From NCBI RefSeq assembly GCF_011064825.1, contig NZ_CP048751.1, positions 620,001 to 684,000 of the forward strand: a DNA stretch of 64,000 bases. The letters are read 5' to 3'. A program made the translations under genes and the position numbers. The notes beneath the pieces were generated by a model. It saw only the letters and a program-made list of their open reading frames with translations, had not been told where the DNA came from and made no database searches. Below, piece after piece: positions 1-22,459 of the stretch. Every line of letters starts with the position of its first letter. The stretch's first letter is position 1. The DNA is from Brevundimonas mediterranea. Lineage in GTDB: Bacteria; Pseudomonadota; Alphaproteobacteria; Caulobacterales; Caulobacteraceae.

Positions 1-1
1 C

Positions 2-1206
2 GAGCTGCCGCCCAGCGATCGGCTATCTGCGTTGGGCCGTCGCGTTCAGTTCAGCCGCGCCGACCTAGCGTTAGCGCGCGCGCCGTATCAGTTGTTGAAG
101 CCATACCTGCTGGACGTGCGGGAGGAGGTCGGCAAACGCGACTCGCTGCGCCGCCAACCGGTGATGACCGACGGGACGACATTCGTAGTCGGCGCGCCAA
201 GTTTCCTGCTCGCCGCGTGGCGCCAGCGCGTCGCCATTCAGGCCGAGACGGCCTCTTGGGGGCCTCGGCTGGCCGAGAAGCGCGTCTTCGCCGAGCTCCG
301 TCGGGTGGCGGAGAGCGGCTTCGAGAAACTTCCGGACCGGTTTGTGATGAAGCCGGTCGGTTCGTTCGTAACAACGTCGGTTCTGCGCGACCACGGCCCC
401 GGTCGATGGGTTCATCTGATGGTCATAGGCGACGGCTTCGCCAATGCATCGGAGGCCAGCCTTGACGAGATGGCACCGAACGCCACCGAGGTCGGCGACT
501 TCCTTATACAACAGGCGGCCCAGGCTGAGTCTTTCGTCTCGACGCAACCCGGTTTCATCGCCGGTGCCCACCTGGTGATCCTGTGTGGGTGGGGTCGCGG
601 TCTGATGTGTCGGCTTCCGGCACCTGCGGCCGGTTGGACGGTGATCCATGCTCCAGCCGCTGATTTCGCGACGATCGGCGCTTTGGGCGTCGACCTCGAC
701 GATCTCTGGCGCATGGAGCAACAGCAGGAGCGTCTGACCGAGGCCGGCATCCGGCTCCTGAATCTGAACGGTACGCTCAATCTGGTTCAGTACTGGCGCT
801 CGACCGACAATCTGCTCACCCCCAATGTCGACGATGGAGCGGTCCCGGTGACCATCTCCGTAGGCACTGACTACGTCCTGCCCGCCCGGCGCGAGGCGTT
901 CAATCGACTCGGCCTCCAATCACTTTCCTGGCGCGAAGACGGCCCCTTCATCCGCGTCCGCCGCAAAGCTACGTCGAGCTGGTTCACCGAACCCGAAGAC
1001 CTGATGCAGTTCATGGCGATGGGAATGGTCATGCAGGGCGAGACTGTCGGTGCGGTCGCTATCGACGGTCTCGCGCCGGTGTGGGTTGAAATTCCCAAGG
1101 CCTGCGGGTCGCACACCTATCGGGTTCCGATGCTGGACATCGTGATCGGCTGGACGGAACGCGCGGTGAAGGCTCTCGCATCCGCCGGTAAAGGGCCAGA
1201 CCAAGT
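2..1206 (+). pseudogene. 5' part of a large gene split by an IS21-family element
   Basis: This is the upstream part of one very large gene. The frame is open from the first bases of the window, so the true start lies further left; the first possible start inside is a TTG at 32. The coding frame stops making sense at 1206, where the IS21 element begins, and the few residues after it are read from the IS end. If the element and one copy of the 7-bp duplication are removed, this frame joins in register to the frame at 3716-5688, giving at least 1046 residues. I recognise no domain in this part. Its base composition is less GC-rich than the core genes further right. It is called a pseudogene because the insertion separates it from its C-terminal nuclease-like domain; a truncated product could still be made. 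Confidence 0.8.
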
Positions 1207-1286
1207 TGTGGATCGGCGTGGAAAAGGGACCCCGTTAGCGGTGTGATCGGCGTCGAATAAGGACCCCTCATTCCTGAGGTCTAACG

Positions 1287-2837
1287 GTGGCGGCTTGGCG
1301 GATGTCAGGCGGCGAGTTCGGGATGTTGGTGTTGGAGACGGTGTTGAGGATTCGGCGCGAGTTTGCGTCCGGGAAGGCGATCAAGGCGATCGCGCGTGAC
1401 CTTCGATTGTCGCGCAAGGTGGTGCGCAAGGCGATCCGGGAGCCGGATGCGGAGTTCGCCTATCGGCGGGCGGTGCAGCCGTTGCCGAGGCTGGCGCCGT
1501 TCCAGGCCAGGCTCGATGAGCTGCTGGAAGAGGACGAGGCGCGGCCGCGGCGCGAGAAGCTGCGGATGACGCGGGTTCATGACCTGCTGGTGCGCGAGGG
1601 GTTCGACGGGTCGTACGACGCGGTCCGGCGCTACGCGGCGGGGTGGCGGCTGAAGCGACGCCGGGGCGTGGCGGACGCGCCATCGTTCATCCCGCTGATG
1701 TTCCGGCCGGGCGAGGCCTACCAGTTCGACTGGAGCCACGAGGACGTGGAGATCGCGGGCAAGCCGATGCGGGTGAAGGTGGCGCACATGCGGCTGTGCG
1801 CCTCGCGGGCGATCTATGTTCGGGCCTATCCGCGCGAGACCCAGGAGATGCTGTTCGACGCGCATGCGCGGGCGTTCGCCTTCTTCGGCGGCGTGCCGAC
1901 GCGCGGGATCTACGACAACATGAAGACGGCGGTGACGACGGTGTTCACGGGCAAGGACCGGGTGTTCAACCGGCGCTTCCTGGTCATGGCGAGCCACTAC
2001 ATGGTGGAGCCGACGGCCTGCTCCCCGGCGGCGGGCTGGGAGAAGGGCCAGGTCGAACACCAGGTCCAGACGGCCCGGGGACGGTTCTTCCAGCCGCGCC
2101 TGCGCTTCACCAGCCTGGAGGAGCTGAACGGCTGGCTGGAGGCGGAGTGCCGGCGCTGGGGCGAGCTGCGTCAGCACCCCGAGCAGAAAGAGCTGACGGT
2201 TGCTCAGGCCCTGGCCGCCGAGCGGCCGGCGCTGCAGCCGATGCTGGGCCCGTTCGACGGCTTCCACGAGAGCGAGCACGCGGTGACGGGGACCTGCCTG
2301 ATCAGCTTCGACCGTAACCGCTACTCGGTGATGGCGAAGGCCGGGCGCCGTACGGTGCAGGTCCGCGCCTATGCCGACCGGATCGTCGTGCGCTGCGAGG
2401 GTGAGGTCGTCGCCGACCATCGCCGGTTCTTCGGTCGTGACCGGACCCTCTACGATCCCTGGCACTACCTCCCGGTGCTGGCGACCAAGCCCGGAGCCCT
2501 GCGCAATGGCGGCGCGCCGTTCCAGGACTGGGAGTTGCCGCCGGGGCTGGCCCGCCTGAGGCGCAAGCTGGGTGCGGGCGACGAAGCCGATCGCCGGTTC
2601 GTGCGGGTTCTGGCGGCGGTGCTGGAAGACGGCCTGGAGCCGGTCGAGGCCGCGGCGCGCGAGGCGCTCGCCGCCGGGACCGTCAGCGACGACGTCATCC
2701 TCAACATCCTGGCGCGCCGGCGCGAACCGCCCCGGCCGCTGAGCATCGTCACGCCCGATGACCTGGCGCTGCGGCATCCGCCTCTGGCGGACTGCGACCG
2801 CTACGACAGCTTGCGAGGCATGCATGCAGCGGCATGA
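1287..2837 (+). CDS. istA: IS21-family transposase IstA
   Basis: This is the DDE-type transposase of the IS21 element, 516 residues and close to family length. The N-terminus holds a helix-turn-helix (residues about 20-50, [20 protein letters not shown]) that would bind the terminal repeats. The integrase core follows, with the typical segment [13 protein letters not shown] around residues 145-158 and [15 protein letters not shown] around 205. An alternative start at 1302 would remove five residues. The 3' end overlaps the start of istB, as usual in the family. Confidence 0.93.
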
Positions 2838-3552
2838 GATGATGGCGGCCCTGACCGGCCTGGGCCTCAAGGGCATGGCCGGAGCCTTCGACGAGGCGGT
2901 CACCACGGGCCTGCAGCGCAAGCGCACGACCATGGAGATCCTCGCCGACCTGCTGCGCGCCGAGACGACCCACCGGCATGCGGCTTCCATCCGTTACCGG
3001 ATGGCGGCGGCCAGGCTGCCCGCCGTGAAGGACCTCGACGCCTTCGTGTTCGACGACACGCCGATCAACGAGGGGCTGGTGCGCTCGCTTCACAGCGGCG
3101 CCTTCCTGGCGAACCGGCGCAACATCGTGCTGGTCGGCGGGACCGGCACGGGCAAGACCCACCTGGCCACCGCCATCATCGCCAACGTCGTGCGGGCCGG
3201 GGCGCGTGGCCGGTACTTCAACACCGTCGACCTGGTGAACCGCCTCGAGGAGGAGACCCGCCTGGGCAAGGCCGGTGCGCTGGCTGCTCACCTCTGCCGC
3301 CTCGACGTCGTGGTCCTCGACGAGCTTGGCTACCTGCCGTTCGCCCGCTCGGGCGGCCAGCTGCTGTTCCACCTGATCAGCAAGCTCTACGAGCGGACCT
3401 CGGTGATCGTCACGACCAACCTCGCCTTCGGCGAATGGCCGACCGTGTTCGGCGATCCCAAGATGACCACGGCCCTGCTCGACCGCATCACCCACCACTG
3501 CGACATCGTCGAGACCGGCAACGACAGCTGGCGCTTCAAACACCGCAGCTAA
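2824..3552 (+). CDS. istB: IS21-family helper ATPase IstB
   Basis: IstB is the AAA+ helper ATPase that works with IstA in target selection and strand transfer. The Walker A motif [11 protein letters not shown] lies near residues 102-112 and a Walker B-like segment [12 protein letters not shown] near 160-171. The start chosen is the ATG at 2824, which overlaps the end of istA by 14 bases and gives 242 residues, close to the family norm. The frame runs further upstream, but residues there look like out-of-frame istA. No damage is visible. Confidence 0.93.
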
Positions 3553-3715
3553 CCCTCCACGAAGAACGCCAGGCGAGGGTTGAGCCTCCGGTCGGGCTAC
3601 GCCCTCCCTACGCCCCAACCCTCGCAAGCGGTGCGCTCGTGACGTCCATCCCGAACCTCAAAAGGGGGTCCCTATTGCACGCCGATAGGGGGTCCCTTTT
3701 AGACGCCGATTGACA

Positions 3716-5688
3716 ACCAAGTCCTGCACCTGACGTTCCAGATCCCCGCCGAAGCCGATGTGGAGGTCTTCGAAACCGCTGGCAACGAAACGGCTCCCGA
3801 CATCTCAGAAACCATCCAGGTCCAGGTAGACGGCAAGTCAGCGACATTCGAGCTGTCTCCCGTCTGGTTCGGTCGATGGCACGACAAGGCTAACACGGCC
3901 GAGCGTGCGTTGGCGGAGCGGATACTACTCGTCGTGAGCGACCTCTCGGACCGACCCGCGACCACGGCTACCTTGGCGCGGCTGGCCACCGTAGTCGTGC
4001 CCGACGATCGCGCCCGCTACCGGCATGCGATCGCGGCCCAAACCTACTACGACCTGATCCAAGGCGTAGACGCACCCGAATATCGGGACCTTCCAGAGTC
4101 TGCGGCGGCCCTAGCAAAAACGGGCCTCGTCTGGGATGCCTTAGGACGCAACATCGTTGGGCGGCTGCCCGAGACCGACGTCCTGCCGACCATCCGCGCG
4201 TCTGTGAACCATCTTCTCCACAAGGTGGCTTCGCGCGCCCTAGCCCTCGATCATGCTGCGCTGGTTCGTCAGATCCTTCGCCGCCTCGAGGGCGCCAACA
4301 TCGACGAACGTCTCTGGAATGACACTGCCGGATCGGCTTTGTCCCTCGCCGATGACAGGGAAAAAGCCGAGGAGGTCTTGCGCGACCGCATCTGGGCCGG
4401 GACCGCCGTGCGCATCGGTTGTCGATTGCTTGCCGAGATCGTTGGATCGGTCCCACTGAATGACGGCGCCAACCCTGAGCCGAGCGTCGTCGATGTAGAC
4501 GAGATGCTCGCTGACACGGTTCTGGCGCTGCACATGGGCGACCTCCACGCCGAGATTGAGAATGGGGTCACGCCGCCGGAGGTCGCGGTGTCGCTTTCCG
4601 GCGAGTTGCTGAGCCAGCAGGACTTCAGCGAAGCGGTGGTTCGGCCAGTGGGTGAGCGGGTCGCCAACCGTAAGATTCGCGCGGACATGCGCCGCTATGA
4701 GAGGCGCGTCGTTCAGCAGGAGGGGATGCCGTCCGTGGATGACAAACTTCCTGCAGAGTATGGCGAAGCCCTAGCTGCCGAGTTCGGCCTCACTATGGAT
4801 GGAATCCGCCACTTTCGGGACGAGCTCGAGAACATCGCGCTCGGGAGAGGCGAGGCCGTGTTCCGGATGCGCCGGTCCGAGGTGGTGAAGCACGTAGTGG
4901 CGGCGCGTGGATTGTCAGAGTCGAGCGTGACGCAGTTTGTCATCCATCTGACGATGCCCGTACGCACCCACTGGAGTGCGCCGCCGCTCGGCTTCTCGCG
5001 CCAGGAAGTCGAACCGTGGCGCTCGGGACGCCGGCTGGCCTTTTACGCTCGTCCGCTGCTCCCTCTCGACGCGAGTGACGACCCAGAGCTGATGATCGCC
5101 CCCGGGGCGGTTGGAACGGGCTTGGAATGGATGACCCGCCGCGCGTTCGACGGCGCGCTGCCCGAGACGTTCTGGACCAGTCCGCAGATGAAGGCTTGGT
5201 CCATCGACGCGGCCGCGCAGGAAGCCGCCGAATTCGCTGAGGACGTCGGCCGCAGGTTTGAAGCGCTAGGATTGGAAGTCGACGTCGGGGTCTACGCCAG
5301 CAAAATTCTGAATGCGAAGGTCCCGCCCGAGCTTGGGGATATCGATGTCTTCGCGCTGGATCGCGCGAGGAACCGCGCCTGGATCGTTGAGGTGAAGGAC
5401 CTTGGTCTCTGCCGGAGCCAGCGCGAGATCGCGCTGCGCCTGGCTGACTATGCCGGCATAGTAAAACCCGGCGGCCGTCCCGACCCCATGATGAAGCATC
5501 TCCGCCGCGTGCGATATGTGCGCGACCAGGCCGCAGCGCTGGCCAAGCACAATCGCCTGACGGCACCCGTCGAGGTCCGGGGTCTTCTCGTGGTCTCCAC
5601 CCCGCAGCCCATGATGGTCGTGGAACCGGCCGACTCGGACGCTCGCGTCGTGCTGCTGGATGATCTTGAGACGGCGATTAAGGATTAG
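3716..5688 (+). pseudogene. 3' part of the IS21-split gene, C-terminal PD-(D/E)xK-like nuclease domain
   Basis: This is the continuation of the frame broken at 1206. The first codons after the duplication read in register with the 5' part, and the only start near the junction is a GTG at 3760, without a clear ribosome binding site. The C-terminal region looks like a restriction-endonuclease fold: GDIDVFALD followed by IVEVKDLG, that is D529, E544 and K546 counted from 3760 (pattern D-x14-E-x-K). The part before it is mostly helical and not recognised. The next gene downstream carries a nuclease-like domain of similar layout, so the two may have worked together. The function is unknown; defence is inferred from the neighbourhood. 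Confidence 0.75.
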
Positions 5689-5850
5689 CATACGCGCAAC
5701 AGGCCTTGCCGATGGGCCAGGACAGTAGCCATGCCACTCACGATTCTGTAGAACATTTGGCGAACAAAAACGCGCGCTTCTGGAGGTGACGTGCCCCTGA
5801 GAATTTCCTCCACGCGGAGCTAGAGTCCGCCCCTTGAAAGGACGGACGGA

Positions 5851-6117
5851 ATGAAACGAGCGAGATTCACGGAAGAGCAGATCATCGGGATCCTGCGGGA
5901 GAACGAGGCCGGCGCGAAAGCGGGCGAGCTGGCGCGCAAGCACGGCGTGTCTGAGGGCACGATCTACGCCTGGAAGGCCAAGTTCGGCGGGATGAGCGTG
6001 TCGGACGCCCAACGCCTCCGGGCCCTGGAAGATGAGAACGGAAAGCTGAAGCGCCTGCTGGCCGACGCCATGCTCGACAAAGCGGCGCTGAACGATCTGC
6101 TCTCAAAAAAGTGGTAG
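5851..6117 (+). CDS. IS3-family transposase OrfA
   Basis: This 88-residue protein is the DNA-binding part of the transposase. It has the helix-turn-helix region typical of IS3 OrfA (FTEEQIIGILRENEAG at the N-terminus, then LARKHGVSEGTIYAWKAKFG) and a C-terminal leucine-rich segment (LRALEDENGKLKRLLADAML) for multimerisation. The sequence A AAA AAG at 6105-6111 just before the stop is a -1 frameshift site that would fuse OrfA to OrfB. Confidence 0.93.
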   Translation: MKRARFTEEQIIGILRENEAGAKAGELARKHGVSEGTIYAWKAKFGGMSVSDAQRLRALEDENGKLKRLLADAMLDKAALNDLLSKKW

Positions 6118-7037
6118 GGCCCGCAGCGATGCGCCAGGCCGTCGCCCATCTGAAGGCGGCGTTCGGCGTCAGCGAGCGGCGGGCCTGCTTCATCATCAAG
6201 GCCGATCGAAAATCGGTGCGCTATCGCTCCTGCCGTCCGCCGGACACGGCGCTGCGGGAGCGGTTGCGCGCGTTGGCCGTGGAGCGGCGACGGTTCGGCT
6301 ATCGCCGGCTGTTCGTGCTGCTGCGGCGTGAGGGCGAGCCTTCGGGCAAGAACCGGATCTACCGGCTCTATCGCGAGGAAGGCCTGACGGTGCGCAAGCG
6401 CCGCTCACGTCGTCGCGCCATCGGCACGCGGGCGCCGATCCTGGTCGAGGTCAGGCAGAACGCCCGTTGGTCGCTGGACTTTGTGCACGACCAGTTCGCC
6501 ACGGGCCGCCGCTTCCGCATTCTCAACGTGGTCGATGACGTCACCCGCGAGTGCCTGGCGGCGATCCCCGACACCTCGATCTCGGGACGCCGCGTCGCGC
6601 GTGAGCTGACCGCGCTGATCGCTCGGCGGGGCCGCCCTGCCATGATCGTCAGCGACAACGGCACGGAGTTCACGTCCACCGCCATACTGGCCTGGGCGCA
6701 GGATCATGGCGTCGACTGGCACTACATCGCGCCGGGCAAGCCGACCCAGAACGGGTTTGTGGAATCCTTCAACGGGCGGATGCGCGACGAACTTTTGAAC
6801 GAAAGCTTGTTCTTTAGCCTCGACCACGCCCGCCAGAAGGTCGCTGCCTGGGCGCTGGACTACAACACCCGCCGGCCGCACTCATCAATCGGCTACCTCA
6901 CCCCGGAGGCTTTTGCCGCCAGTCTGACCGCAACAGGCCGACCCGCTGCGCAGGATGAAAGCTGCGCGGTCCGGCCTGTTGCTCATCCCACGCTGCGAGG
7001 CGTAACTAACCCAAGGACTCTGGTCGCCGCTGGATGA
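6111..7037 (+). CDS. IS3-family transposase OrfB (DDE integrase core)
   Basis: This is the catalytic part of the transposase, with the rve integrase core. Acidic residues of the DDE triad are visible in WSLDFVHDQF, in IVSDNGTEFTS and in GFVESFNGRMRDELLNE, followed by the usual YNTRRPHSSIGYLTPEAF. Its frame is -1 relative to OrfA. The listed start at 6111 is the first codon read after slippage at A AAA AAG, so the working product is most likely an OrfAB fusion. It looks intact. Confidence 0.93.
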   Translation: MVGPAAMRQAVAHLKAAFGVSERRACFIIKADRKSVRYRSCRPPDTALRERLRALAVERRRFGYRRLFVLLRREGEPSGKNRIYRLYREEGLTVRKRRSRRRAIGTRAPILVEVRQNARWSLDFVHDQFATGRRFRILNVVDDVTRECLAAIPDTSISGRRVARELTALIARRGRPAMIVSDNGTEFTSTAILAWAQDHGVDWHYIAPGKPTQNGFVESFNGRMRDELLNESLFFSLDHARQKVAAWALDYNTRRPHSSIGYLTPEAFAASLTATGRPAAQDESCAVRPVAHPTLRGVTNPRTLVAAG

Positions 7038-7055
7038 AAACTCAGGGGCACGTCA

Positions 7056-7060
7056 GAGGA
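7056..7060 (+). promoter_or_regulatory. Ribosome binding site rebuilt by the IS3 target duplication
   Basis: Before the insertion this site read TCTGGAGGAACTATG, a strong Shine-Dalgarno four bases from the ATG at 7064. The IS split it after GGAGG, and the duplicated GAGG at its right end restores GAGGA in front of the same ATG. Translation signals are therefore kept, while any promoter lies on the far side of the element. Confidence 0.75.
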
Positions 7061-7063
7061 ACT

Positions 7064-9220
7064 ATGGACGCGAGGACCGAGACAGAAGTGTTCGCGGACC
7101 TGGCTGACCTTTGCCGGTCACCCGGCTTCATCCATGCGATCGCCTACTTCGACTTTCGCGACAACCTCATCCGGTTTGGGGACCGGCTCGATGCCGAGGC
7201 GATGGAAAGCCAGCACGCAGCGGAGCGGCTAGTCCGTACCGAGATCGCCACCATGATCGGCCTTATGGTTCAGGCCACCATCGACGCCACCCTCCCGGCT
7301 CCCGAGCGGTTTCAGGAATATGTCGATCGCGCGCAGGCGCTTCTCCAGGAGCTCCATTGGGCGATGTCGGCGTCTTGGCGCGACAGCTTCAAGGTCGTGG
7401 ATGGCGTCGCGCAGATTCAGGAGCCCATGTGGGCCGGCCCCAGTCTACGCGAGCCAATCTTCTACTCGGGGGAGTCTGCCTACGGGTTCCAATACCGCGC
7501 CTTGGCGATACGAAAATACGCCGCCGACAATCCTTGGCTCTTAGCAAACAAGGGTTTTGAGATCGGCGACGCCGTCGCGGTCGCGAAAACGCTAGCGGAT
7601 GTGCTTTCGGAACGTCAGATGGCGCTCTCCAAGGCAATGGTGGAGCTTCCGCCCGACGCGTGGACGATGCTGCCGGGATCGGTTTTTTCGGTCGATGACC
7701 TTCAGGCTCGATGCGAGTTGGATCGCTCACGGATTGAGGCGGTGCTGGCGGCGTTCACCTTACCGTCGGGAGATCTAAACCCACGCTTCACGGCTCTCCA
7801 CGAGTTCAACGCCACCAACGCGATGCCCCTCTTGCATTGGGACGATGGGCAGTTCCTGCTGCTCCAGCACTACAGTCTGCTGGAAGCGATCTACGAAAGT
7901 CCGGTGTTCTGGCTGACGGACGACAAGGCATATGCGCCGACCGCCGTGCGTCATCGCGGCGCATTTACCGAGACCTTCGCTGCCGAACGCCTGGAAAAGG
8001 TTTTCGGGAAAGCTCGAGTGTTTCGGAACATCGACATCTATGGCCCTGACCGCAATCGCGTCGGCGAGATTGATGTTCTCGCCATCTATGGCCGCCGGGC
8101 GATCCTCGTGCAGGCAAAATCCAAACGCCTGACCATTGAGGCCCGCAAAGGCAACGACCTGCAGCTCAAGGACGATTTCAAGAAGGCGGTGCAGGATGCA
8201 GCCGATCAGGCGTTTCTCTGCGCCACTGCCTTGCTGGACTCATCCTTCAAGCTGAAAAATGCCGCAGGCGATGAGATCGAACTGCCGCGCCGTTTCGACG
8301 TCATCCAGCCGCTGTGCATCGTCTCTGACCACTATCCAGCCCTCGCCTTTCAGGCGAGCGAGTTTCTCAAACAGAAGACGACTGAGCACATCGTCGCCCC
8401 CTTGGTGATGGATGTGTTCGCCCTGGACGTGATGGCCGAAATGCTCGCCTCACCCCTGCAATTTCTACATTATTTGACGCTACGGGAGCGGTTCGGCGAC
8501 CGGCTTTCGGCCAGTCACGAGCTCACTTTGCTAGGTTATCATCTCACGCATCATCTCTGGTTCGACGACGAATTCAACATGATGACACTGGGGGATGACT
8601 TCAGTATTCCGCTCGATATCGCCATGCTGGCGCGTCGCGACGGACTTCCGGGGCTAGAAACACCGGAAGGCATCCTGACCAAGCTCAAGGGTACGACCTT
8701 TGGCCGTTTGGTCGCACAGATCGAAAGCCACGATGACCCCGACATCGGGGAGTTGGGATTGTTGTTGCTCCAACTCGGTGAGGAGACGGCCAGGTCACTC
8801 AGCTCGGGTATCGATACGCTTGCCGGCGCGGCCAGAAGAGATCGACGTTCCCATGACCTTTCGCTGGAGTTCGGCGAAGCCCAGTCGGGCCTGACTGTGC
8901 ATTGTCGTTACCCGGACACGCCTGACACCATGCCGAGGCTGTTGGCGCATTGCCAGCTCCGCAAGTACGCCAGCAAAGCCGACCACTGGCATGGTCTTCT
9001 CATTCACCCCGATACTCTCGATATCCTGGCCGGTGTCGGATCACGCGAGTCATGGGCGTTCGACGCCAAGATGGAAGAATTGGTGAAGCAGTGGCCAGTT
9101 CGCCCGCAAGTGCCGTGGAACGCCATAAAGCAGCAGATTGCTCAAAAGGTCGGCCGAAACGATCCTTGTCCTTGCGGCAGCGGAAAGAAGCACAAGAAAT
9201 GCTGCCTGGTGAGCTACTGA
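7064..9220 (+). CDS. NERD-like nuclease domain protein with C-terminal SEC-C zinc motif
   Basis: This 718-residue protein is not a named family to me. The middle carries a nuclease-like domain with GEIDVLAIYGRRAILVQAKS, that is E335, D337, Q350 and K352, the layout of NERD and other PD-(D/E)xK-like enzymes. The C-terminus (residues 697-714, GRNDPCPCGSGKKHKKCC) is a SEC-C zinc-binding motif like that at the end of SecA. The first 300 residues and the region 400-690 are mostly helical and not recognised. The ATG at 7064 was chosen because GAGGA precedes it; the earlier ATG at 7034 lies inside the IS. It follows another protein with a nuclease-like domain and may have been co-transcribed with it. 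A role in phage defence is inferred from context. Confidence 0.8.
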   Translation: MDARTETEVFADLADLCRSPGFIHAIAYFDFRDNLIRFGDRLDAEAMESQHAAERLVRTEIATMIGLMVQATIDATLPAPERFQEYVDRAQALLQELHWAMSASWRDSFKVVDGVAQIQEPMWAGPSLREPIFYSGESAYGFQYRALAIRKYAADNPWLLANKGFEIGDAVAVAKTLADVLSERQMALSKAMVELPPDAWTMLPGSVFSVDDLQARCELDRSRIEAVLAAFTLPSGDLNPRFTALHEFNATNAMPLLHWDDGQFLLLQHYSLLEAIYESPVFWLTDDKAYAPTAVRHRGAFTETFAAERLEKVFGKARVFRNIDIYGPDRNRVGEIDVLAIYGRRAILVQAKSKRLTIEARKGNDLQLKDDFKKAVQDAADQAFLCATALLDSSFKLKNAAGDEIELPRRFDVIQPLCIVSDHYPALAFQASEFLKQKTTEHIVAPLVMDVFALDVMAEMLASPLQFLHYLTLRERFGDRLSASHELTLLGYHLTHHLWFDDEFNMMTLGDDFSIPLDIAMLARRDGLPGLETPEGILTKLKGTTFGRLVAQIESHDDPDIGELGLLLLQLGEETARSLSSGIDTLAGAARRDRRSHDLSLEFGEAQSGLTVHCRYPDTPDTMPRLLAHCQLRKYASKADHWHGLLIHPDTLDILAGVGSRESWAFDAKMEELVKQWPVRPQVPWNAIKQQIAQKVGRNDPCPCGSGKKHKKCCLVSY

Positions 9221-9739: not shown

Positions 9740-9947
9740 CCGGACCAACGAATGGATCGCCAGCCGTGCCGTTAACTGGGTTCACCTCAGCGTCGAAAGC
9801 AAACATCGGCCTGCTTGCGCGAAGCAGACATTTCGCCAAGATCGCAGATTCGACGATGCCTAAGTTGGGACGATCCGGTGCGGCTCGTCGGCCATCCCAT
9901 CTCCTGTCTTGGGGCCACCCGAGCCGGGGCTTAACGTGAGGCTGTTG

Positions 9948-10838
9948 ATGAACCTTGACTATGGGGTTACCGACCCGTTCGCACCGGCCAGCCAAGTGGG
10001 ATTTGGAGGCGAGGCGCGGACGGTTCACGCGCGGCGGCACACCGATTCAGCCGAGGCGTGGCTGCGATTGCTGGTGCACCGCAAGCTGAGTCCCACGCGC
10101 CAAAATTACATAACGGAAGGAACATGGAAGCAAGCCCTGCGGGACCACGTCGCCGCACGCTATCTCGCCAACCTTGGACAGTTTTCGCGTGAGATCGATG
10201 CGACCACGTTCGACCAGTTGATCGACATGGTATGTCACCCGAACCATTGGTCTGCCTGGTCGGAGGCTCTCGACGAGGCTTATCCGAACGGCCCGAAAGA
10301 GGCGCGCGTATTCCTTGAGCGCCTTCAGGTCATCCGTAATGCTGTCGCTCACGGGCGCATGGCCTCAGAACGGGATCTTGAACGGGCGGTTTGTTACGCC
10401 AACGATCTGGCGGATAGCATCAAATCATACTTCGGGAGGCTAGGTTTGGAGCGCGAGTTTAATGTGCCGACAGTTGTTCGCGCCTACGACAACCTTGGCA
10501 ACGACATCCATGTGGTCGCGGACCCAAACTACTCCTATCGGCCGATAGATTTCTCGTCGCCTCCCGCCCGCTCCCTATCTCCCGGCGATACCCTTATCGC
10601 GGAGGTGGAGGTGGACCCGACCTATGCTGCCGGGACCTATGACGTCGTCTGGCGCGTCAAAACGCACGACATCGGACTGCAACAAGGTTCAAAGGCTATC
10701 CTGGCCATCACAGAACGCCACATCGGCGCGCGATTGGAGATACAGTTCAAAGTCGTCAGCCATCTCGATTGGCATAAGGGTTCGGATGCGGACGACGTTA
10801 TAGACCTCTACTATCGGGTTAGACCGCCGCCAGCCTAA
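9948..10838 (+). CDS. HEPN-like (Swt1/RiboL-type) domain protein, hypothetical
   Basis: The 296-residue product has an N-terminal half that resembles a HEPN domain. The segment FLERLQVIRNAVAHGR contains R130-NAVA-H135, the Rx4H active-site motif of HEPN ribonucleases, set in predicted helices. The second half (residues about 165-296) appears rich in beta strands and is not recognised. The ATG at 9948 is preceded by GTGAGG seven bases upstream; earlier TTG and GTG starts are possible. HEPN proteins in defence islands often cut RNA as abortive-infection toxins. No obvious antitoxin partner is next to it apart from the small upstream frame. Function is inferred only. Confidence 0.65.
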   Translation: MNLDYGVTDPFAPASQVGFGGEARTVHARRHTDSAEAWLRLLVHRKLSPTRQNYITEGTWKQALRDHVAARYLANLGQFSREIDATTFDQLIDMVCHPNHWSAWSEALDEAYPNGPKEARVFLERLQVIRNAVAHGRMASERDLERAVCYANDLADSIKSYFGRLGLEREFNVPTVVRAYDNLGNDIHVVADPNYSYRPIDFSSPPARSLSPGDTLIAEVEVDPTYAAGTYDVVWRVKTHDIGLQQGSKAILAITERHIGARLEIQFKVVSHLDWHKGSDADDVIDLYYRVRPPPA

Positions 10839-11030: not shown

Positions 11031-11759
11031 CTAGCCGAGCCACTCTTCATGGGCCAACGGCTCGGCGTTGAGCTCGTCACGTAGCAGTCGCCAGTTCGGC
11101 AACGCGCCATCCATCAAGGCGACAAACCGCTCCGAATGTTGCCGCTCCAGAAAATGCACCAGCTCATGCACGACGACATACTCCAGAGACTGGGGGGGCT
11201 TCTTGACCAGCTCCAGATTGAGCCAGATGCGACCGGCATCGACGTTGCAGGCTCCCCACTTCGTCTTCATCCGCTTGATTCCCCATATCGGCAAAGGAAG
11301 GACTAGCTTGGCGGCCCACTTGTCGATGAAGGGCGTTGCCTGCGAGCGAAGTTCTTCCCGATACCAGCTGAGTAAGATGCGCTCTCGGGTTTCCCGGTCG
11401 CTTCCGGTCCTGACAAAGAGATCAAGCGCCTTGCTGCTACGGACGTGCACGCGGCCAGAAGGAGCCCCTTCGATCAGGCGGAGCCGGTAGGGCCGGCCCA
11501 TGAAATAATGGGTCTCGCCTGACACATAGGCGCGCTCGGATTGCCGAGGCTGCGCGGCGAACCGGGCGCGTTGGCGCTTGATCCAGGGCAAACGGGTCAC
11601 CACGGCCAGCCGCACCGCGTCGTCGCTCACGGTAAGCGGCGCGGCCACCCGAACCCGCCCGTGGGGTGGATAGACACCGACGTGCAGGTTCTTGATCGGC
11701 TTGCGTATGACGTCGATACGAAGGCCGCCAACGCTGAGCCTCTGGGCCTCAATACTCAT
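11031..11759 (-). CDS. YgjP-like M48-type metallopeptidase (DUF45)
   Basis: This 242-residue protein is a YgjP-type (DUF45) zinc metallopeptidase. The signature HELVHFLERQHSERF gives the HExxH metal ligands and a downstream histidine. The N-terminal strand-rich part and the segment TKWGACNVDAGRIWLNLELV are also typical. Its start overlaps the last 11 bases of hsdR, so it is the last gene of the hsdM-hsdS-hsdR operon and is probably translationally coupled. Such peptidases are recurrent companions of type I restriction operons, but I know of no firm role; a part in controlling restriction by proteolysis is speculation. Confidence 0.88.
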   Translation of the reverse strand: MSIEAQRLSVGGLRIDVIRKPIKNLHVGVYPPHGRVRVAAPLTVSDDAVRLAVVTRLPWIKRQRARFAAQPRQSERAYVSGETHYFMGRPYRLRLIEGAPSGRVHVRSSKALDLFVRTGSDRETRERILLSWYREELRSQATPFIDKWAAKLVLPLPIWGIKRMKTKWGACNVDAGRIWLNLELVKKPPQSLEYVVVHELVHFLERQHSERFVALMDGALPNWRLLRDELNAEPLAHEEWLG

Positions 11760-14700
11760 GCTGGTTCTTCACCAGATCCATGATGAATTCGGCCTGTTCG
11801 TTGTCCGAAACGTGGAACCGGATCGCATTGCGGACCTCGCGCTCTTTGAAGGTATTTCCCCGCCAATCGTCCTTCTTGACCTTGCGAATTTCCGTATCGA
11901 TCGCTCTGGCCAAGTCCTCGTCCTTGCCGAGGTTGTCGTACAGGGCCCGCCGCGCGGCCGAGTTCATGGCGTCGGGATAAACCGCCCCGGAAGCCGGGCT
12001 GCTCGCCTTCTTCGTGAGCTCTACGATCTCGGCGAGGTATTTCTCGTAATCGATAGCTTGCTGCTTCCGCTGCTCGATCAAGGCGTCGAGGAGTTCCGAC
12101 ATCGTCTCGTAGTATTTTGGATTGATCGGCGTCTCGTCGATGATCAGTTTGCGGACGTTATTCTCGATGGTCTCGGCAACGGCTTCCCGGCTCTCACGAA
12201 TGCCCTTCGGCAAGGCGTCAACCGCGTCCGGGCCGCGTTCGACGATCAACTGGATCAGCGACATATCGTCGAAGGCCGAGATCAATTCGCTTTCCTCGGC
12301 CCGGATGTAGGTGTCGATCAGGTGCCGCATCGCCGGCTCGTACATCTTGAGATCGATGTAGTCGCCGCTGGCCAGCTTCACTTCATTGCGGACCTTCTCG
12401 AAATGGTCGACGTCCGTCTTGATCGTTGTGATGCCGGCATCGGAATAGCCCGCTTCGGACATTTCACCGGCAATGTCCGCATAGGCCCGCACCAGCGAGG
12501 CGGCGAGTTTGTAGAGCGCCAGCCGCTTCGGCTCATTGGCTTTCAGCGCATCTTTGTCGCTGGTGTCCGCTCCGCAGAAGAACCGGATGTAGGCGGGTGT
12601 GTCGCGCGGATACTCGACCGGCTCACATAGGGCTCTGATGGTCTCAAGGGCTTCGTCCAGGCGCTTGCGACCCATCTCCAGCCGGTCTGACAAGAGGCCC
12701 GCGACGTCCTCCTTCGCATAGCCGTCGAGCGCACCCTTGGTGTAATCGTGGATCGAGGTCTCAAGGCTCTGGAACAGGTCCTTGTAATCGATGATGTAGC
12801 CATATTCCTTGTCGTCGCCATCCAGCCGGTTGACCCGGCAAATGGCCTGGAACAGGCCGTGATCCCTCATCTGCTTGTCGATGTAGAGGTAGGTCGCCGC
12901 CGGGGCGTCGAAGCCGGTCAGGAGCTTGTCCACGACGATGAGCAGCTTCATTTGGCCGGGCTCGTCGACGAACTTCTTCTTGGCCTCCTTCTCGAAGGCT
13001 TCGGGATCCTGGCCCCCGAGCATGTTGTTATAGATCTCGAACTTTCGCAGGCGTTCCGTCAGGCCCTCGCCGCTCGCCTCACCCTTGATGTCGTTCGGAG
13101 AGGGTTTGTAGGAGGTGACGATCGCGCACTTGCCGGCGAGGTCGGTCTTGGCGAACAACTCATAGAATTTGCACGCCTGATAGATGCTGCCGGAAACCAG
13201 CATCGCATTGCCGCGACCGCTCTTCAGGCGATCCCGGGTCTCCATGTCGAGCAGGATGTCGGCGACGATTTTCTCAAGCCGCGACTGGCTGGAAAGCACC
13301 TTCTGGAGAGTCCCCCAGCGCTGCTTCAACTGCGCCTTGGCCAGATCGTTCAAGCCCTTGGTCTTGGCCTCGAACCATTGATCGATCTTGGCGGGCGAGG
13401 TGATGTTCTGATCGATGTCCCGCGCCTCGTAGCGCAGGTCGAGCACGACCCCGTCGCTGACCGCCTCGTCGAACTTGTAGGTGTGGATGTAGGGGCCGAA
13501 GACCTCGATGCTGGTCTGCCGGTCGGCTTTCAGCAGAGGGGTTCCGGTGAAGCCAATGAACAGGGCATTGGGCAGCAGGGCCTTCATCGCCTTGTGCAAC
13601 TCCCCGGTCTGGGTCCGGTGACACTCGTCGACAAACACATAGATGTCGCCCTTGGGCGTGAACCCGACCGGCAGCGCCTGTTTCATCGCCTCGATATAGC
13701 CGGTGACATCGCCACCCTGATCGTCGTCCTTGCCGGCGAACTTGTGGACCAGCGAGCAGAGCAGCCACGGGTCGGTCTCGTTGAGTCTGGCGATCAGATC
13801 GGCGCCGCTCTTGGTCCGCACGATCTGTTCGTTCACGCCCTTGAACACCTTCTCGATCTGCTCATCGAGTTCGGTACGGTCGGTGATGATCAGGATCCGG
13901 GCGTCGCTGACATGCTCCCGAATCCATTTGGTCAGCCACACCATGGTCAGGCTCTTTCCCGACCCTTGGGTGTGCCAGATGATCCCGCCCGCACGCCGTC
14001 GGACATGATCCTGCGCGGCCCGCACGCCGAAATACTGGTTGTGGCGGCATAGCTTCTTGATGCCGGAATCGAAGACGATGAAATCGTGGACCAGCTCAAG
14101 GAAGCGGGCCTTGTTACAGGTCTGCAGCAGGGCGCGATCCAGCGGGTTTTCGACCGCGCTCGGCTCCTTCCAGGCGAGATAGTATTTCTCGGGCGTCTCA
14201 ATGGCGCCGTAGCGCATGCCCTCTGTGTCATTCCCCGCCATGATGATCTGCAGGGTGGTGAAGAAGGGCTGGATGAAGATTTTCGTCTGATTGTCGAGGT
14301 TCTGGCGGATGCCCTCCGACACCGAAACGGTTGAGCGTTTCAGCTCCAGAACGCCCAGCGCGATGCCGTTCACATAGATCACGACGTCCGGACGCTTGCC
14401 GTAGGCCTTGGCCGCGTCGGTGCTTGCTGGCTTGACCGCCACCTCTTCGGCGATGGCGAAGTGATTGGCGTCCGGATCAGCCCAATCGATCAGCCAGACG
14501 GTTTGGCTGTTCTCGCCGATCTCAGCTTTCACCTTCACGCCATAGCGCAGCAGCTCGTAGACGTCGCGGTTGATGTCAAAGAGGCTCCGTGATTGGTCGG
14601 TCGCGACCTTGGTCAGATGGGCGATGGCCTTGGTGACCAGAGCCGGCTCGTAGCCCTTCGCTTCAAGGAAGGGACGCAGATAGGCGGGCTCGATATTGGC

Positions 14701-14811
14701 GTTGCCCACCCGGTCGATCCAGTTACCCAGATAGTCGTACCCAAGCTGATCCTGAAACAGACGCACGATCCGCGCCTGCGTCCGCTTTTCGATCTGGCCG
14801 ACCGTATTCAT
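11749..14811 (-). CDS. hsdR: Type I restriction endonuclease subunit R
   Basis: HsdR cuts DNA after ATP-driven translocation by the HsdR2M2S complex. The 1020-residue protein has an N-terminal nuclease domain with RPDVVIYVNGIALGVLELKR (residues about 137-156, D...ExK). The superfamily 2 helicase motor follows, with Walker A HTQGSGKSLT near 278, DECHRTQ near 393 and GFTGTP near 420. The C-terminal part is helical and would contact HsdM. Length is usual for the family and no break is visible. It lies downstream of hsdM and hsdS, separated from hsdS by a 91-bp gap. Confidence 0.95.
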   Translation of the reverse strand: MNTVGQIEKRTQARIVRLFQDQLGYDYLGNWIDRVGNANIEPAYLRPFLEAKGYEPALVTKAIAHLTKVATDQSRSLFDINRDVYELLRYGVKVKAEIGENSQTVWLIDWADPDANHFAIAEEVAVKPASTDAAKAYGKRPDVVIYVNGIALGVLELKRSTVSVSEGIRQNLDNQTKIFIQPFFTTLQIIMAGNDTEGMRYGAIETPEKYYLAWKEPSAVENPLDRALLQTCNKARFLELVHDFIVFDSGIKKLCRHNQYFGVRAAQDHVRRRAGGIIWHTQGSGKSLTMVWLTKWIREHVSDARILIITDRTELDEQIEKVFKGVNEQIVRTKSGADLIARLNETDPWLLCSLVHKFAGKDDDQGGDVTGYIEAMKQALPVGFTPKGDIYVFVDECHRTQTGELHKAMKALLPNALFIGFTGTPLLKADRQTSIEVFGPYIHTYKFDEAVSDGVVLDLRYEARDIDQNITSPAKIDQWFEAKTKGLNDLAKAQLKQRWGTLQKVLSSQSRLEKIVADILLDMETRDRLKSGRGNAMLVSGSIYQACKFYELFAKTDLAGKCAIVTSYKPSPNDIKGEASGEGLTERLRKFEIYNNMLGGQDPEAFEKEAKKKFVDEPGQMKLLIVVDKLLTGFDAPAATYLYIDKQMRDHGLFQAICRVNRLDGDDKEYGYIIDYKDLFQSLETSIHDYTKGALDGYAKEDVAGLLSDRLEMGRKRLDEALETIRALCEPVEYPRDTPAYIRFFCGADTSDKDALKANEPKRLALYKLAASLVRAYADIAGEMSEAGYSDAGITTIKTDVDHFEKVRNEVKLASGDYIDLKMYEPAMRHLIDTYIRAEESELISAFDDMSLIQLIVERGPDAVDALPKGIRESREAVAETIENNVRKLIIDETPINPKYYETMSELLDALIEQRKQQAIDYEKYLAEIVELTKKASSPASGAVYPDAMNSAARRALYDNLGKDEDLARAIDTEIRKVKKDDWRGNTFKEREVRNAIRFHVSDNEQAEFIMDLVKNQHEY

Positions 14812-14902
14812 GCCTGAACCTCATTGCAGGGCATTTGCGGCGCTGGAGCCGGATTCCAGCCGCCGACATCCCAGCCGATGAACACCTGATCGCCGCCTGC
14901 CA

Positions 14903-16090
14903 TTATACCAGCCGCACCCGTCCGGTCAGCAGTTCCTGCATCATGCCCTGCTTGACCGCGCGGGCCTTGGCGGCCTGAGCCTCAAGGGCGGCGAGGTCAG
15001 CGTCCATGTCGGAGAGGGCTTCGGCGATTGCGGTTTGTTCGGCTTTCGTCGGAGGCGCAAGAACTTCAAGGATCAACAGCTTTGAAACCGTCAGAACTGG
15101 TTGGGCAGATGACTCGGCGCGACGATTGAGGCCGAGAGTGTCCAAAATCACTGCCAACCAGCCAATGTCCACCCGATCCAACGCAGTCACAACAATCGCG
15201 TGCTCCGAGGCGAAAAACTTGCCATCGGCGAGCAAGATATTCCCGCAGAGCGCACCAACCCGGCCGATCAATGCGTAGCGCCCCTGATGCGTGAAGCGCG
15301 TTGTGTATCCGCGAAGTCCGTTACCCCCATAGCACGGATACGCTGAGCTTTCGTCGATGCTCTTGGCAGTAATTCCCTCACCGCTTCGCATCGCACACAA
15401 CTCACCGAGCCGCTTCACCTCCCACTCCCCCGAGAACCCCGGCAGGCGGGTTTTACCGGTGAGGAGGTGTTGCATGGCGGCCTGCTTGAGGTCGCGTTTT
15501 TTGGCGATCATCCCCTCCAACGCCGCAATCAACGTATCCGCATCCGACAACGCCTCCGCAATGCCGCGCTGTTCGGGGAGGGACGGAAGAGGAACATTGG
15601 TATCACGAACTTGCACCAAGCTGAGCTGTGGGTATGCCTGACCGGTAGTAATCGAATTATAGAAGACGCGAATTTCCGGCTGACGTAGATAGTGAAAGAG
15701 AAATTCTTCATCAGCTTCTCTCGCGACAATTCTTACTCTGGCGATGTGCTGATTTAAGTTGGCCGCTCCAATGCCCGACAGGCGAACGATTCTTCCTACA
15801 TTGCCTGTAATAGTAACTAAAATGTCGCCATCTTTGACTTCACTCCGCCGCAATGTGCGGTGCGCAGTTTCTGAAATAAACATAGACTTTTCAAGATCAA
15901 GTCCATCTTCAGAAACGCATTCGCTGCGCAAAAAGAGAACGCCTGACTGCACCCAGTCGAAGCCGTAGGTCGTCGGTGTAGAGCCCTTGGTGATAAATTC
16001 AGAAAGGACGCCCAGAGAGCGAACCTCCCAATCCTCAGGAATAACCCCCACCTCCGACTGCTTGTACCCCGGCCTGATCCCGCCCTGCAT
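14903..16090 (-). CDS. hsdS: Type I restriction-modification specificity subunit S
   Basis: HsdS recognises the split target sequence and guides methylation and cleavage. The 395-residue product has the two-fold layout of the family: two target recognition domains, each followed by a conserved helical spacer (LPEQRGIAEALSDADTLIAALE and PTKAEQTAIAEALSDMDADLAALE). The ATG at 16090 lies two bases beyond the hsdM stop and begins MQGGIRPGYKQSEVGVIPEDW, a standard HsdS N-terminus; longer frames run into hsdM. The first recognition domain, about 15,600-15,990, is clearly richer in A and T than the rest, which suggests exchange of this domain by recombination. Confidence 0.94.
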   Translation of the reverse strand: MQGGIRPGYKQSEVGVIPEDWEVRSLGVLSEFITKGSTPTTYGFDWVQSGVLFLRSECVSEDGLDLEKSMFISETAHRTLRRSEVKDGDILVTITGNVGRIVRLSGIGAANLNQHIARVRIVAREADEEFLFHYLRQPEIRVFYNSITTGQAYPQLSLVQVRDTNVPLPSLPEQRGIAEALSDADTLIAALEGMIAKKRDLKQAAMQHLLTGKTRLPGFSGEWEVKRLGELCAMRSGEGITAKSIDESSAYPCYGGNGLRGYTTRFTHQGRYALIGRVGALCGNILLADGKFFASEHAIVVTALDRVDIGWLAVILDTLGLNRRAESSAQPVLTVSKLLILEVLAPPTKAEQTAIAEALSDMDADLAALEAQAAKARAVKQGMMQELLTGRVRLV

Positions 16091-16092
16091 CG

Positions 16093-18534
16093 TCACGCCG
16101 TGAACCCCATCTGCTTCAGATGCGCGGCCACACGGGCGCTCAGCACGTCCAGATCCTCGGCCAGCTTCGGCAGCGGCGTGGCATAGCGTTCCGCCAGAAC
16201 CTTGACGCGCCCTGCCAGCGCCTGGGACACGCGGTCCACCTCGGCCCCGATATCCGCCCGTACCTGCGCCAGCCATTTGTCCTCGACCAGCAGGGCTCTC
16301 ACCCGATCCTCGGTGAGCTTGGCATACTGGGCCACCACCGCCGCATCCAGCGCCGCCTGCGCCGCATTGACCGCCGCATCGGCATCCGCCGCCGCCTGGA
16401 TCAGCGACAGGCAGGTTTTCAGCATCGCCCGCTCCTCGCCCGCGTCATTGTCCAGTCGGATGTCCTTGATCCGGTCCTTGACCGATTTCGCGGTCAGCTT
16501 GCTCTTGCCGGTCTTGGCTTCAAACAGCAGCCCATCCTCACCGCCGTGTTCTTCGTCCAGCTCCTCCACCGCCCGCGCGGCCTCTTCGGCCTTAGCCTCC
16601 AAAGCTTCCAGCGAAGCCTGCTCGGCGGCAAAGAACCGCGCCACGACAAAAGTGGGCGGGATCAGCTCCGCCTTCAACTTGCGCCGCCCCAGCGTGATGT
16701 CGGGGGTTTCCGTGAACTTGCCGTCGGCATTCTTGACCAGTTCGCGGATCACCCGCCCCGCCGCCCAACCGTCCTGGACGAGGATGTAGGTGTCGTCCTG
16801 CATGACCTCGGCCCAATAGGTCATCAGGTGCTGATAGACGTCGTAGCCGTCGATCAGCGGCACGGGCTTGAAGCGATCCAGCAGGTCTTCGGAAATGGTG
16901 GCGATCAGCTCCTTGGGATGGTCGCCGATGGCGATGTGCCGCAACCGTTCGAGATGATCTGCCGCCCATGTCGCGAACACCTCGGTCACCCGCTCGGTGA
17001 AGGCGGCAAACTCGGGGTGGTTCAGGATCGCGCCCTTGACCTCGGCGGCATCGACCAACGGCGTCAGGTAGCCCGGCCGGTCGCCCGGACCGAACAATGT
17101 AGCCCGGACCGCAGGCAGCTCGCGCCAGAAATCAGACAGTGCATCGACGTCGCGGACCGGTATGCCGCCCTTCAGATGCGCTTCGATATCCTGCAGGTCT
17201 TCGGGTTCGGAGGAGTCGATGTAGCGCGGGATGTTGAGGTTGAAGCCGTGCTTTTCGATCTCGGCCAGCGGCACCATGCGGGAATATTTGTCGATCTCGA
17301 CCTGCTTGGTGAAAGCGTCGACAATCTTGTGCAGGTCCTGGGACCGCAGACGGTTCTTGTTGCCGTCCTTCACGAAGCCCTTGGAGGCGTCGACCATGAA
17401 GATGCCGGTCCGGGCGTGGGCGTTTTCCTTGTCGAGCACCACGATGCAGGCCGGGATGCCGGTGCCGTAGAACAGGTTCGCGGGCAAACCGATGATGCCC
17501 TTGATGTAGCCTTTTCGGACGATCTTCTCGCGGATGTCAGCCTCGGCATTGCCCCGGAAGAGGACGCCGTGGGGCAGGATGACCGCGCCCTTCCCGGTCG
17601 TCTTCAGCGAGGCGAGGATGTGTAGGAGATAGGCGTAGTCGCCGTTCTTGGCGGGCGGCACGCCATAGTCGAACCGGTCATAGAGATCGTTGGCCGGATC
17701 GAGGCCGGTACCCCATGCCTTGTCCGAGAACGGTGGGTTGGCGACGACGAAGTCGAAGGTTTTCAAACCGCCGGCCGCGTTCTTGAAATGAGGGCTGGAC
17801 AGGGTGTTGTCGCGCCAGATTTCGGCGGTCGGGCAGTCGTGCAGCACCATGTTCATCTTGGCGAGGGCGCGGGTCGCAACATCCTTCTCCTGGCCGTAGA
17901 TGGTGATGCCGTGGGGGGCCTCATCGCGCGCTTTGAGCAACAGGGACCCGGACCCGCAGGTCGGATCGTAGATCGTCTGGTCCGCGCTCTTCGAGGCGCT
18001 GATGCCGATGGCCTTGGCCATGATCCGCGAGACCTCGGCCGGGGTGTAGAACTGGCCCTTGCTCTTGCCTGACTCAGTCGCAAAGTGGCGCATGAGGTAT
18101 TCATAGGCGTCGCCCAGAATGTCGTCGCCTTCCGCGCGGTTCTTGCGGAAATCCAATTCGGGCCGGTTGAAGATCGCCACGAGACTGGAGAGGCGATCGA
18201 CCATCTCCCTTCCGGAGCCCAGCTTTTCCGGATCGTTGAAGTCTGCGACGTCGATCACGCCCTTGAGGTCGTTAGCCTCGGCGAGCTTGGCGATGATGAT
18301 GTTGATCCTCTCGCCAATGTCCTTGTCGCCCTTGAGCGCGACCATGTCGGCGAAGCTGCCGCCGTCCGGCACTTCGATCAGGCCGTTCGGGTCGCCGGCG
18401 TATTTATCGGAGACGTATTTCACGAACAGCAGCACGAGGACGTAGTCCTTGTACTGAGACGCATCCATACCGCCGCGAAGAGCGTCGCAGCTGGCCCAGA
18501 GGGAGCTGTAGATCTCAGATTTCTTGACTGCCAT
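16093..18534 (-). CDS. hsdM: Type I restriction-modification DNA methyltransferase subunit M
   Basis: HsdM is the N6-adenine methyltransferase of the complex. The N-terminal helical domain (SSLWASCDALRGGMDASQYK) precedes the catalytic domain with motif I YDPTCGSGSLLL near residue 185 and motif IV VVANPPFSDKAWG near 262. At 813 residues it is longer than the common 500-residue HsdM. The extra C-terminal part is rich in Glu, Ala and Lys and probably coiled-coil. The ATG at 18534 was chosen because a GGGGG tract lies just upstream and MAVKKSEIYSSLW matches family N-termini. It is the first gene of the operon. Confidence 0.94.
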   Translation of the reverse strand: MAVKKSEIYSSLWASCDALRGGMDASQYKDYVLVLLFVKYVSDKYAGDPNGLIEVPDGGSFADMVALKGDKDIGERINIIIAKLAEANDLKGVIDVADFNDPEKLGSGREMVDRLSSLVAIFNRPELDFRKNRAEGDDILGDAYEYLMRHFATESGKSKGQFYTPAEVSRIMAKAIGISASKSADQTIYDPTCGSGSLLLKARDEAPHGITIYGQEKDVATRALAKMNMVLHDCPTAEIWRDNTLSSPHFKNAAGGLKTFDFVVANPPFSDKAWGTGLDPANDLYDRFDYGVPPAKNGDYAYLLHILASLKTTGKGAVILPHGVLFRGNAEADIREKIVRKGYIKGIIGLPANLFYGTGIPACIVVLDKENAHARTGIFMVDASKGFVKDGNKNRLRSQDLHKIVDAFTKQVEIDKYSRMVPLAEIEKHGFNLNIPRYIDSSEPEDLQDIEAHLKGGIPVRDVDALSDFWRELPAVRATLFGPGDRPGYLTPLVDAAEVKGAILNHPEFAAFTERVTEVFATWAADHLERLRHIAIGDHPKELIATISEDLLDRFKPVPLIDGYDVYQHLMTYWAEVMQDDTYILVQDGWAAGRVIRELVKNADGKFTETPDITLGRRKLKAELIPPTFVVARFFAAEQASLEALEAKAEEAARAVEELDEEHGGEDGLLFEAKTGKSKLTAKSVKDRIKDIRLDNDAGEERAMLKTCLSLIQAAADADAAVNAAQAALDAAVVAQYAKLTEDRVRALLVEDKWLAQVRADIGAEVDRVSQALAGRVKVLAERYATPLPKLAEDLDVLSARVAAHLKQMGFTA

Positions 18535-20827: not shown

Positions 20828-20860
20828 GACAGCCTCCATCGTCGTGCAGATTTCGTGCAC

Positions 20861-22382: not shown

Positions 22383-22459
22383 TGGAGGCCTGACCTCCGA
22401 GTCGAACGGAGGGTTTCCGGGGTTGCACGCCCGTCGCGTCGCCACTCCGCCATCAGGCC
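22383..22459 (-). tRNA. tRNA-Cys(GCA)
   Basis: On the minus strand the acceptor GGCCTGA pairs with TCAGGCC, and the gene ends in TCCA, the discriminator U being the main cysteine identity base. The anticodon loop CGTGCAA shows anticodon GCA. The T arm is CTCCG TTCGACT CGGAG. The CCA end is encoded. The outer anticodon stem pairs are weak. Confidence 0.9.

What the first reader, a model, noticed from the sequence alone, without database searches (positions are those of the whole stretch)
3716..9220. Two adjacent large proteins each with a nuclease-like active site: candidate undescribed defence pair
The IS21-split gene ends in D-x14-E-x-K within GDIDVFALD...IVEVKD, and the next gene carries E-x-D...Q-x-K within GEIDVLAIYGRRAILVQAKS plus a C-terminal SEC-C zinc motif. 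I see no annotated defence family with this pair. They sit upstream of a HEPN-like protein, a type I R-M operon and an integrase, which is typical of a defence island. The C-terminal layouts look alike, which hints at a shared mechanism.
Basis: partly seen in the sequence, partly recalled or inferred. Interest (0 to 1): 0.78.

Follow-up and report, generated by a model that had tools for sequence, protein, structure and literature searches.

The report
Broken Upx gene beside related nuclease
One of the two genes is an insertion-broken copy of the known anti-phage gene upx; the other is a widespread, unnamed nuclease gene that looks like a shorter distant relative of Upx and sometimes sits near defence genes, but the two rarely travel together.

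The parts
1..1206 (+). Gene A (upx relative), piece 1; the gene begins about 550 bases before the window
   Evidence: PADLOC Upx 2.7e-23, NCBIfam NF042954 8.5e-25; 9wuf 9.4e-16; upstream ORF in L002
1200..1206 (.). Target-site duplication ACCAAGT, left copy (right copy 3716-3722)
   Evidence: sequence, compared with the empty site in G127
1207..3715 (+). IS21-family element splitting gene A (transposase ORF 1287-2837, ATPase ORF 2758-3552)
   Evidence: ORFs and ends TGTGGATCGG...CCGATTGACA; family named by reading, not from a search
3716..5688 (+). Gene A (upx relative), piece 2 with the C-terminal PD-(D/E)xK nuclease
5344..5397 (+). Gene A catalytic motif D529-x14-E544-x-K546
   Evidence: 42 of 42 aligned sequences keep D, E and K
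5787..7055 (+). IS3-family element between gene A and gene B, inserted in gene B's ribosome-binding site (GAGG duplication 5783-5786 / 7056-7059)
   Evidence: integrase ORF 6111-7037 with rve/HTH_21; inverted ends; empty site in G127
7064..9220 (+). Gene B: NERD-type PD-(D/E)xK nuclease with SEC-C tail, 718 aa
7955..8236 (+). NERD domain of gene B
   Evidence: PF08378, 3.8e-6
7970..8119 (+). Gene B catalytic residues E303, E335-x-D337, Q350-x-K352
   Evidence: 130-131 of 131 conserved
9155..9205 (+). SEC-C zinc-binding motif at the C-terminus of gene B
   Evidence: PF02810, 3.8e-8
9909..10838 (+). Swt1-like HEPN protein (neighbour; sub-threshold)
   Evidence: PF18731 1.1e-5, 26.1 bits vs cut-off 27.5
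11749..18570 (-). Neighbouring type I restriction-modification-like ORFs (11749-14811, 14903-16276, 16093-18570)
   Evidence: ORFs; named by reading the sequence, not searched
19400..20860 (-). Tyrosine-recombinase-like integrase ORF
   Evidence: ORF; named by reading, not searched

Best explanation
[not shown]
Against: No activity was measured here or found in print for gene B. Many B loci have no confirmed defence neighbour (individually scanned ORFs of L004, L006, L043, L059, L060, L074, L077, L078, L088 gave none). The defence-neighbour contrast (97 against 25 PADLOC families) is inflated by overlapping models, was not resolved per locus for all loci, the controls hold defence genes too, and the sample is plasmid-heavy. 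The B-Upx link is remote: 10-11% identity, B alone against Upx only p 0.0006-0.0016, TM-score 0.39. VIA aligns B with the Upx N-half while the profile match hits the C-half, so the exact correspondence is unsettled.
Confidence: 0.6

Rival explanations
1. A and B form one two-gene defence system (a Upx variant with a second nuclease subunit), transcribed together, with the two related proteins forming a complex.
For: Co-directional with a 97-nt gap in G127; a divergent Upx relative in G743 has a SEC-C nuclease of the same superfamily on the same strand about 1.9 kb downstream; A and B look homologous.
Against: 0 of 13 other genomes with B or a B relative have Upx; 1 of 10 other Upx genomes has full-length B; 13 of 14 other Upx loci have no B/C relative in the held flanks, which are short for L080, L082 and L119. 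In both genomes with the close pair, upx is broken.
Confidence: 0.12
2. Gene B is not a defence gene but a nuclease for mobile-element maintenance, DNA repair or RNA processing that travels on plasmids and islands.
For: Some copies sit beside integrases, mobilisation or plasmid genes (L046, L083, L085) or near filamentous-phage-like genes (L050; L075 and L076 by reading), and some beside what read as ordinary chromosomal genes.
Against: Close neighbours elsewhere include Avs2, Mokosh, Borvo, a CBASS effector and type I restriction genes; the closest solved fold is a defence protein.
Confidence: 0.22
3. The likeness of A and B is only the common PD-(D/E)xK core, a convergence of design and not a closer kinship.
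Against: The profile match (B 149-374) starts about 150 residues before the nuclease core, and the structure match covers 399 residues against 177 for the next best.
Confidence: 0.25

Closest known systems
Upx (PADLOC PDLC02221; NCBIfam NF042954; PDB 9wuf 'Cryo-EM structure of Upx')
   Same: Gene A: nearly whole-length family match in two pieces, C-terminal D/ExK conserved. Gene B: significant fold match and B+C profile match to the C-terminal half.
   Different: Gene A is divergent (86 and 324 bits against a 1,900-bit equivalog cut-off) and IS-split. Gene B is 718 aa against about 1,250, has Q-x-K in place of E-x-K and carries a SEC-C tail.
NERD-domain nucleases (PF08378), in Mokosh type I and Nhi-like systems, PglW, DndF and TALON
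   Same: Gene B carries a NERD domain with the E/D...QxK site.
   Different: In PglW and DndF the NERD is fused to kinase or P-loop domains, and TALON pairs it with a helicase (passages in PMC12839542, PMC10853773, PMC12458937; PMC10952713 lists NERD for Mokosh I and Nhi-like). Pfam finds none of these in gene B, which ends in SEC-C.
N.BspD6I/R.BspD6I, Can2/Card1 and McrC PD-(D/E)xK nucleases
   Different: Shorter alignments (123-182 residues); Pfam finds no CARF domain in B.
PADLOC candidate PDC-S12 (SEC-C)
   Same: SEC-C tail only (2.2e-8, 26 residues).
   Different: No match to the rest of gene B.

Membership tests
Upx (gene A) | Full-length profile match | tested here: met
   Two pieces cover profile 244-602 and 665-1248 of 1271; the part outside the window matches too (NF042954 24-583 in G000).
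Upx (gene A) | NCBIfam equivalog cut-off of 1,900 bits | tested here: not met
   86 and 324 bits for the two pieces. Of the genomes searched with this model only G938 passed. So family relative, not equivalog.
Upx (gene A) | Conserved C-terminal PD-(D/E)xK site | tested here: met
   D529, E544, K546 in 42 of 42 aligned sequences.
Upx (gene A) | Phage protection | not testable with these tools
   The gene is split here; no bench test possible.
Upx (gene B as a member) | Upx family profile match of gene B itself | tested here: not met
   No Upx hit for gene B in PADLOC or NCBIfam at E<=1; no 9wuf hit by sequence profile at E<=1.
Upx superfamily (gene B, works-like) | Shared fold beyond the nuclease core | tested here: met
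NERD nuclease (gene B) | PF08378 above gathering cut-off | tested here: met
   27.8 bits vs 22.1.
NERD nuclease (gene B) | Conserved catalytic E...D...Q/E-x-K | tested here: met
   130-131 of 131.
SEC-C zinc-motif protein (gene B) | CxC...CC/HC at the C-terminus | tested here: met
   PF02810 33.5 bits vs 20.4; 125-129 of 131.
Obligate A-B pair | Repeated co-occurrence | tested here: not met
   Both in 2 of 131 genus genomes; 0 of 13; 1 of 10. One further vicinity in L121.

The most novel reading that the evidence does not exclude
Upx and the NERD/SEC-C nucleases form one unrecognised superfamily of stand-alone defence nucleases built on a common module (helical N-part, winged-helix-like piece, PD-(D/E)xK core). 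Upx would be two fused modules whose N-terminal nuclease has died, while gene B and its sister family C are single active modules. In a few lineages the two are kept side by side and may act together.
Probability: 0.25. Interest if true: 0.65.

Novelty: new variant of a known kind. Interest (0 to 1): 0.45.

Why it matters
My searches found no open paper explaining how Upx works. A compact relative with an intact active site and some 2,000 database matches would offer a smaller protein in which to test the mechanism. Members with a SEC-C tail carry uninformative or wrong names in public records ('prepilin peptidase', 'preprotein translocase') and have no model of their own in the 2023 PADLOC library tested, so such surveys would overlook them.

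Tried and rejected
Pair as a conserved unit: rejected by genus, family, class, phylum and plasmid searches; in viral contigs 6 B and 3 Upx loci were found, none with both in the held flanks. Recurrent neighbour of B: all-against-all of 198 neighbour ORFs found only a Mokosh pair shared by two rhizobial plasmids, apart from near-duplicate loci and one pair of genes shared by L003/L067 and L068. B in annotated phage records: no match. Viral structure library: no match below 0.001. Internal duplication of Upx by profile of N-half against C-half: 0.14, no better than its reversed control 0.22; B+C against N-half 0.0035 (controls 0.06 and 0.055). Equal contig lengths of one Upx protein (P0125) and one family C protein (P0182) were noticed; by my rough estimate such coincidences are expected among the listed rows, so not used. 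Defence-neighbour test: 102 ORFs near B from 27 loci gave 97 PADLOC families at 1e-10, 105 control ORFs from 21 windows gave 25. At least 9 of 27 loci have a match seen or 129 (L045's inferred from a two-member count); further matches (PDC-S58, DrmD, ApeA) were not assigned to a locus, nor were all control matches. Literature: no paper holds NERD, SEC-C, phage and defense together; one search listed 8 papers on NERD and defence, 4 read in passages; one search gave two unrelated papers by title; one search listed 15 of 294, of which one was read in a passage. Gao et al. 2020 is not held and is cited from recall.

Full report
What is there. The window lies in a 3.38-Mb single-contig genome of the same genus as G127. 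G127's contig length equals that of the longest contig holding P0002, a protein 91% identical to gene B and labelled Brevundimonas naejangsanensis, so the host is inferred to be a Brevundimonas. Upstream of gene A, outside the window, are ORFs that I read as a relaxase-like protein and a TraG-like coupling protein (L002; named by reading, not searched). Downstream are a Swt1-like HEPN protein (sub-threshold), type I restriction-like ORFs on the minus strand and an integrase-like ORF (by reading). The two genes are therefore probably cargo of a mobile element.

Both genes bear insertions. The IS21-family element (1207-3715) splits gene A. An IS3-family element (5787-7055) sits in gene B's ribosome-binding site, leaving a GAGG copy before the ATG at 7064. 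G127 has both sites empty and a 97-nt gap between upx and gene B. In G127 upx is also broken, by a change of frame near residue 280, which could be a real lesion or a sequencing error.

Are A and B homologous? B alone against the Upx C-half gives p 0.0016 and 5.7e-4 with more sequences. A distant sister family C (L066:7066-9321 and relatives) is clearly homologous to B (99.1%, 8.6e-19, 496 columns). Family C alone against Upx is weak (0.009 to 0.017). A combined profile (51 of the 131 B sequences and 37 of the 120 listed C sequences) against the Upx C-half reaches 91.3% and 9.6e-7 over B 149-374, aligning B's EID...QAK with Upx's GDIDV...EAK. Reversing one side gives 0.42 and 0.72; reversing both sides, which keeps the true pairing, gives 1.4e-4. 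The same profile against the Upx N-half gives 0.0035 (one side reversed 0.06 and 0.055, both 0.011). Upx N-half against C-half gives 0.14, no better than its reversed control of 0.22.

Do they travel together? Genus: B (E<=1e-20) in 4 of 131 genomes, one of them a fragment, and Upx (E<=1e-5) in 4 of 131; both in G000 and G127 only. Family: B over most of its length in 6 of 199 (two pieces in G040; the other 32 matching genomes have short SEC-C or weak partial matches), Upx in 3 of 199. Class: B (E<=1e-40) in 4 of 385, two of them partial relatives of about 30% identity, Upx in 3 of 385; only G000 is in both. Phylum: Upx in 5 of 398, two of them weak (1.2e-6, 7.9e-4). Upx was not found in 13 of 13 other genomes with B or a B relative, one a fragment (that call rang nowhere, but the same model rang). 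B was full-length in 1 of 10 Upx genomes, G127, with a remote match on another contig in G982. Plasmids: B in 35 of 72,556 records, Upx in 6, no accession in both. In the flanks of 14 other Upx loci, one, L121 (G743), has a B/C relative: a Upx-like gene (HH 97.3%, 1.6e-11) and, two ORFs on, a SEC-C nuclease (99.8%, 6e-28 to B+C) on the same strand. Three of these loci have short flanks (L080 on one side, L082, L119). None of 21 control windows has a clear B/C member; one has a 17-bit match.

What B sits next to. Seen: Avs2 directly downstream (L046), Mokosh MkoA and MkoB (L044; L045 by similarity and member count), a type I methylase (L049), PDC-S39 and PDC-S02 (L047), PDC-S20 (L050), PDC-M54A over part of a 1,709-aa protein (L048), a CBASS SAVED-TM effector (L003), an OLD/AriA-like ATPase (L086), and Borvo BovA in G127. 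Against: the individually scanned ORFs of L043, L004, L006, L059, L060, L078, L088, L074 and L077 gave no match. The control set has defence genes too: Hhe and Kiwa at L109, and single or double matches to mad3, mad8, DndC, PtuA and ThsB models. The association is suggestive, not proven.

How it most likely works. Inferred from fold and residues: B is a metal-dependent nuclease whose N-terminal half recognises or positions invader nucleic acid and whose zinc tail docks a partner. Nothing shown here says what triggers it. NERD nucleases are known as parts of larger defence systems (passages of PMC10952713, PMC12839542, PMC10853773, PMC12458937). In one Vibrio pangenome study a NERD-domain nuclease falls into a gene cluster associated with a phage (one table passage of PMC12409351); it was not compared with gene B.

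Verdict. The motif observation is correct. The 'undescribed pair' becomes one known, broken defence gene and one widespread undescribed nuclease that is probably its distant relative.

Noticed in passing
   Followed up: yes
L058:4777-8516: The G127 copy of upx is also broken, by a frame change near residue 280, so both copies seen close beside gene B are defective.
   Followed up: partly
L066:7066-9321 and 14963-17140: Two members of sister family C (about 750 aa; no Pfam domain found in the first) flank a 1,313-aa protein with a weak STAND-NTPase match: a possible undescribed defence locus.
   Followed up: partly
L121:5922-13977: Very divergent Upx relative, two small ORFs and a SEC-C nuclease on one strand in a genome listed only as 'same phylum'.
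   Followed up: partly
L118:3236-7075: A 1,280-aa nSTAND3 protein stands on the opposite strand next to an intact Upx.
   Followed up: no
L050, L075, L076: Gene B relatives near filamentous-phage-like (Zot-type) genes.
   Followed up: no
22383-22459: ARAGORN calls a tRNA of unclear type near the integrase-like ORF; possibly an integration site.
   Followed up: no
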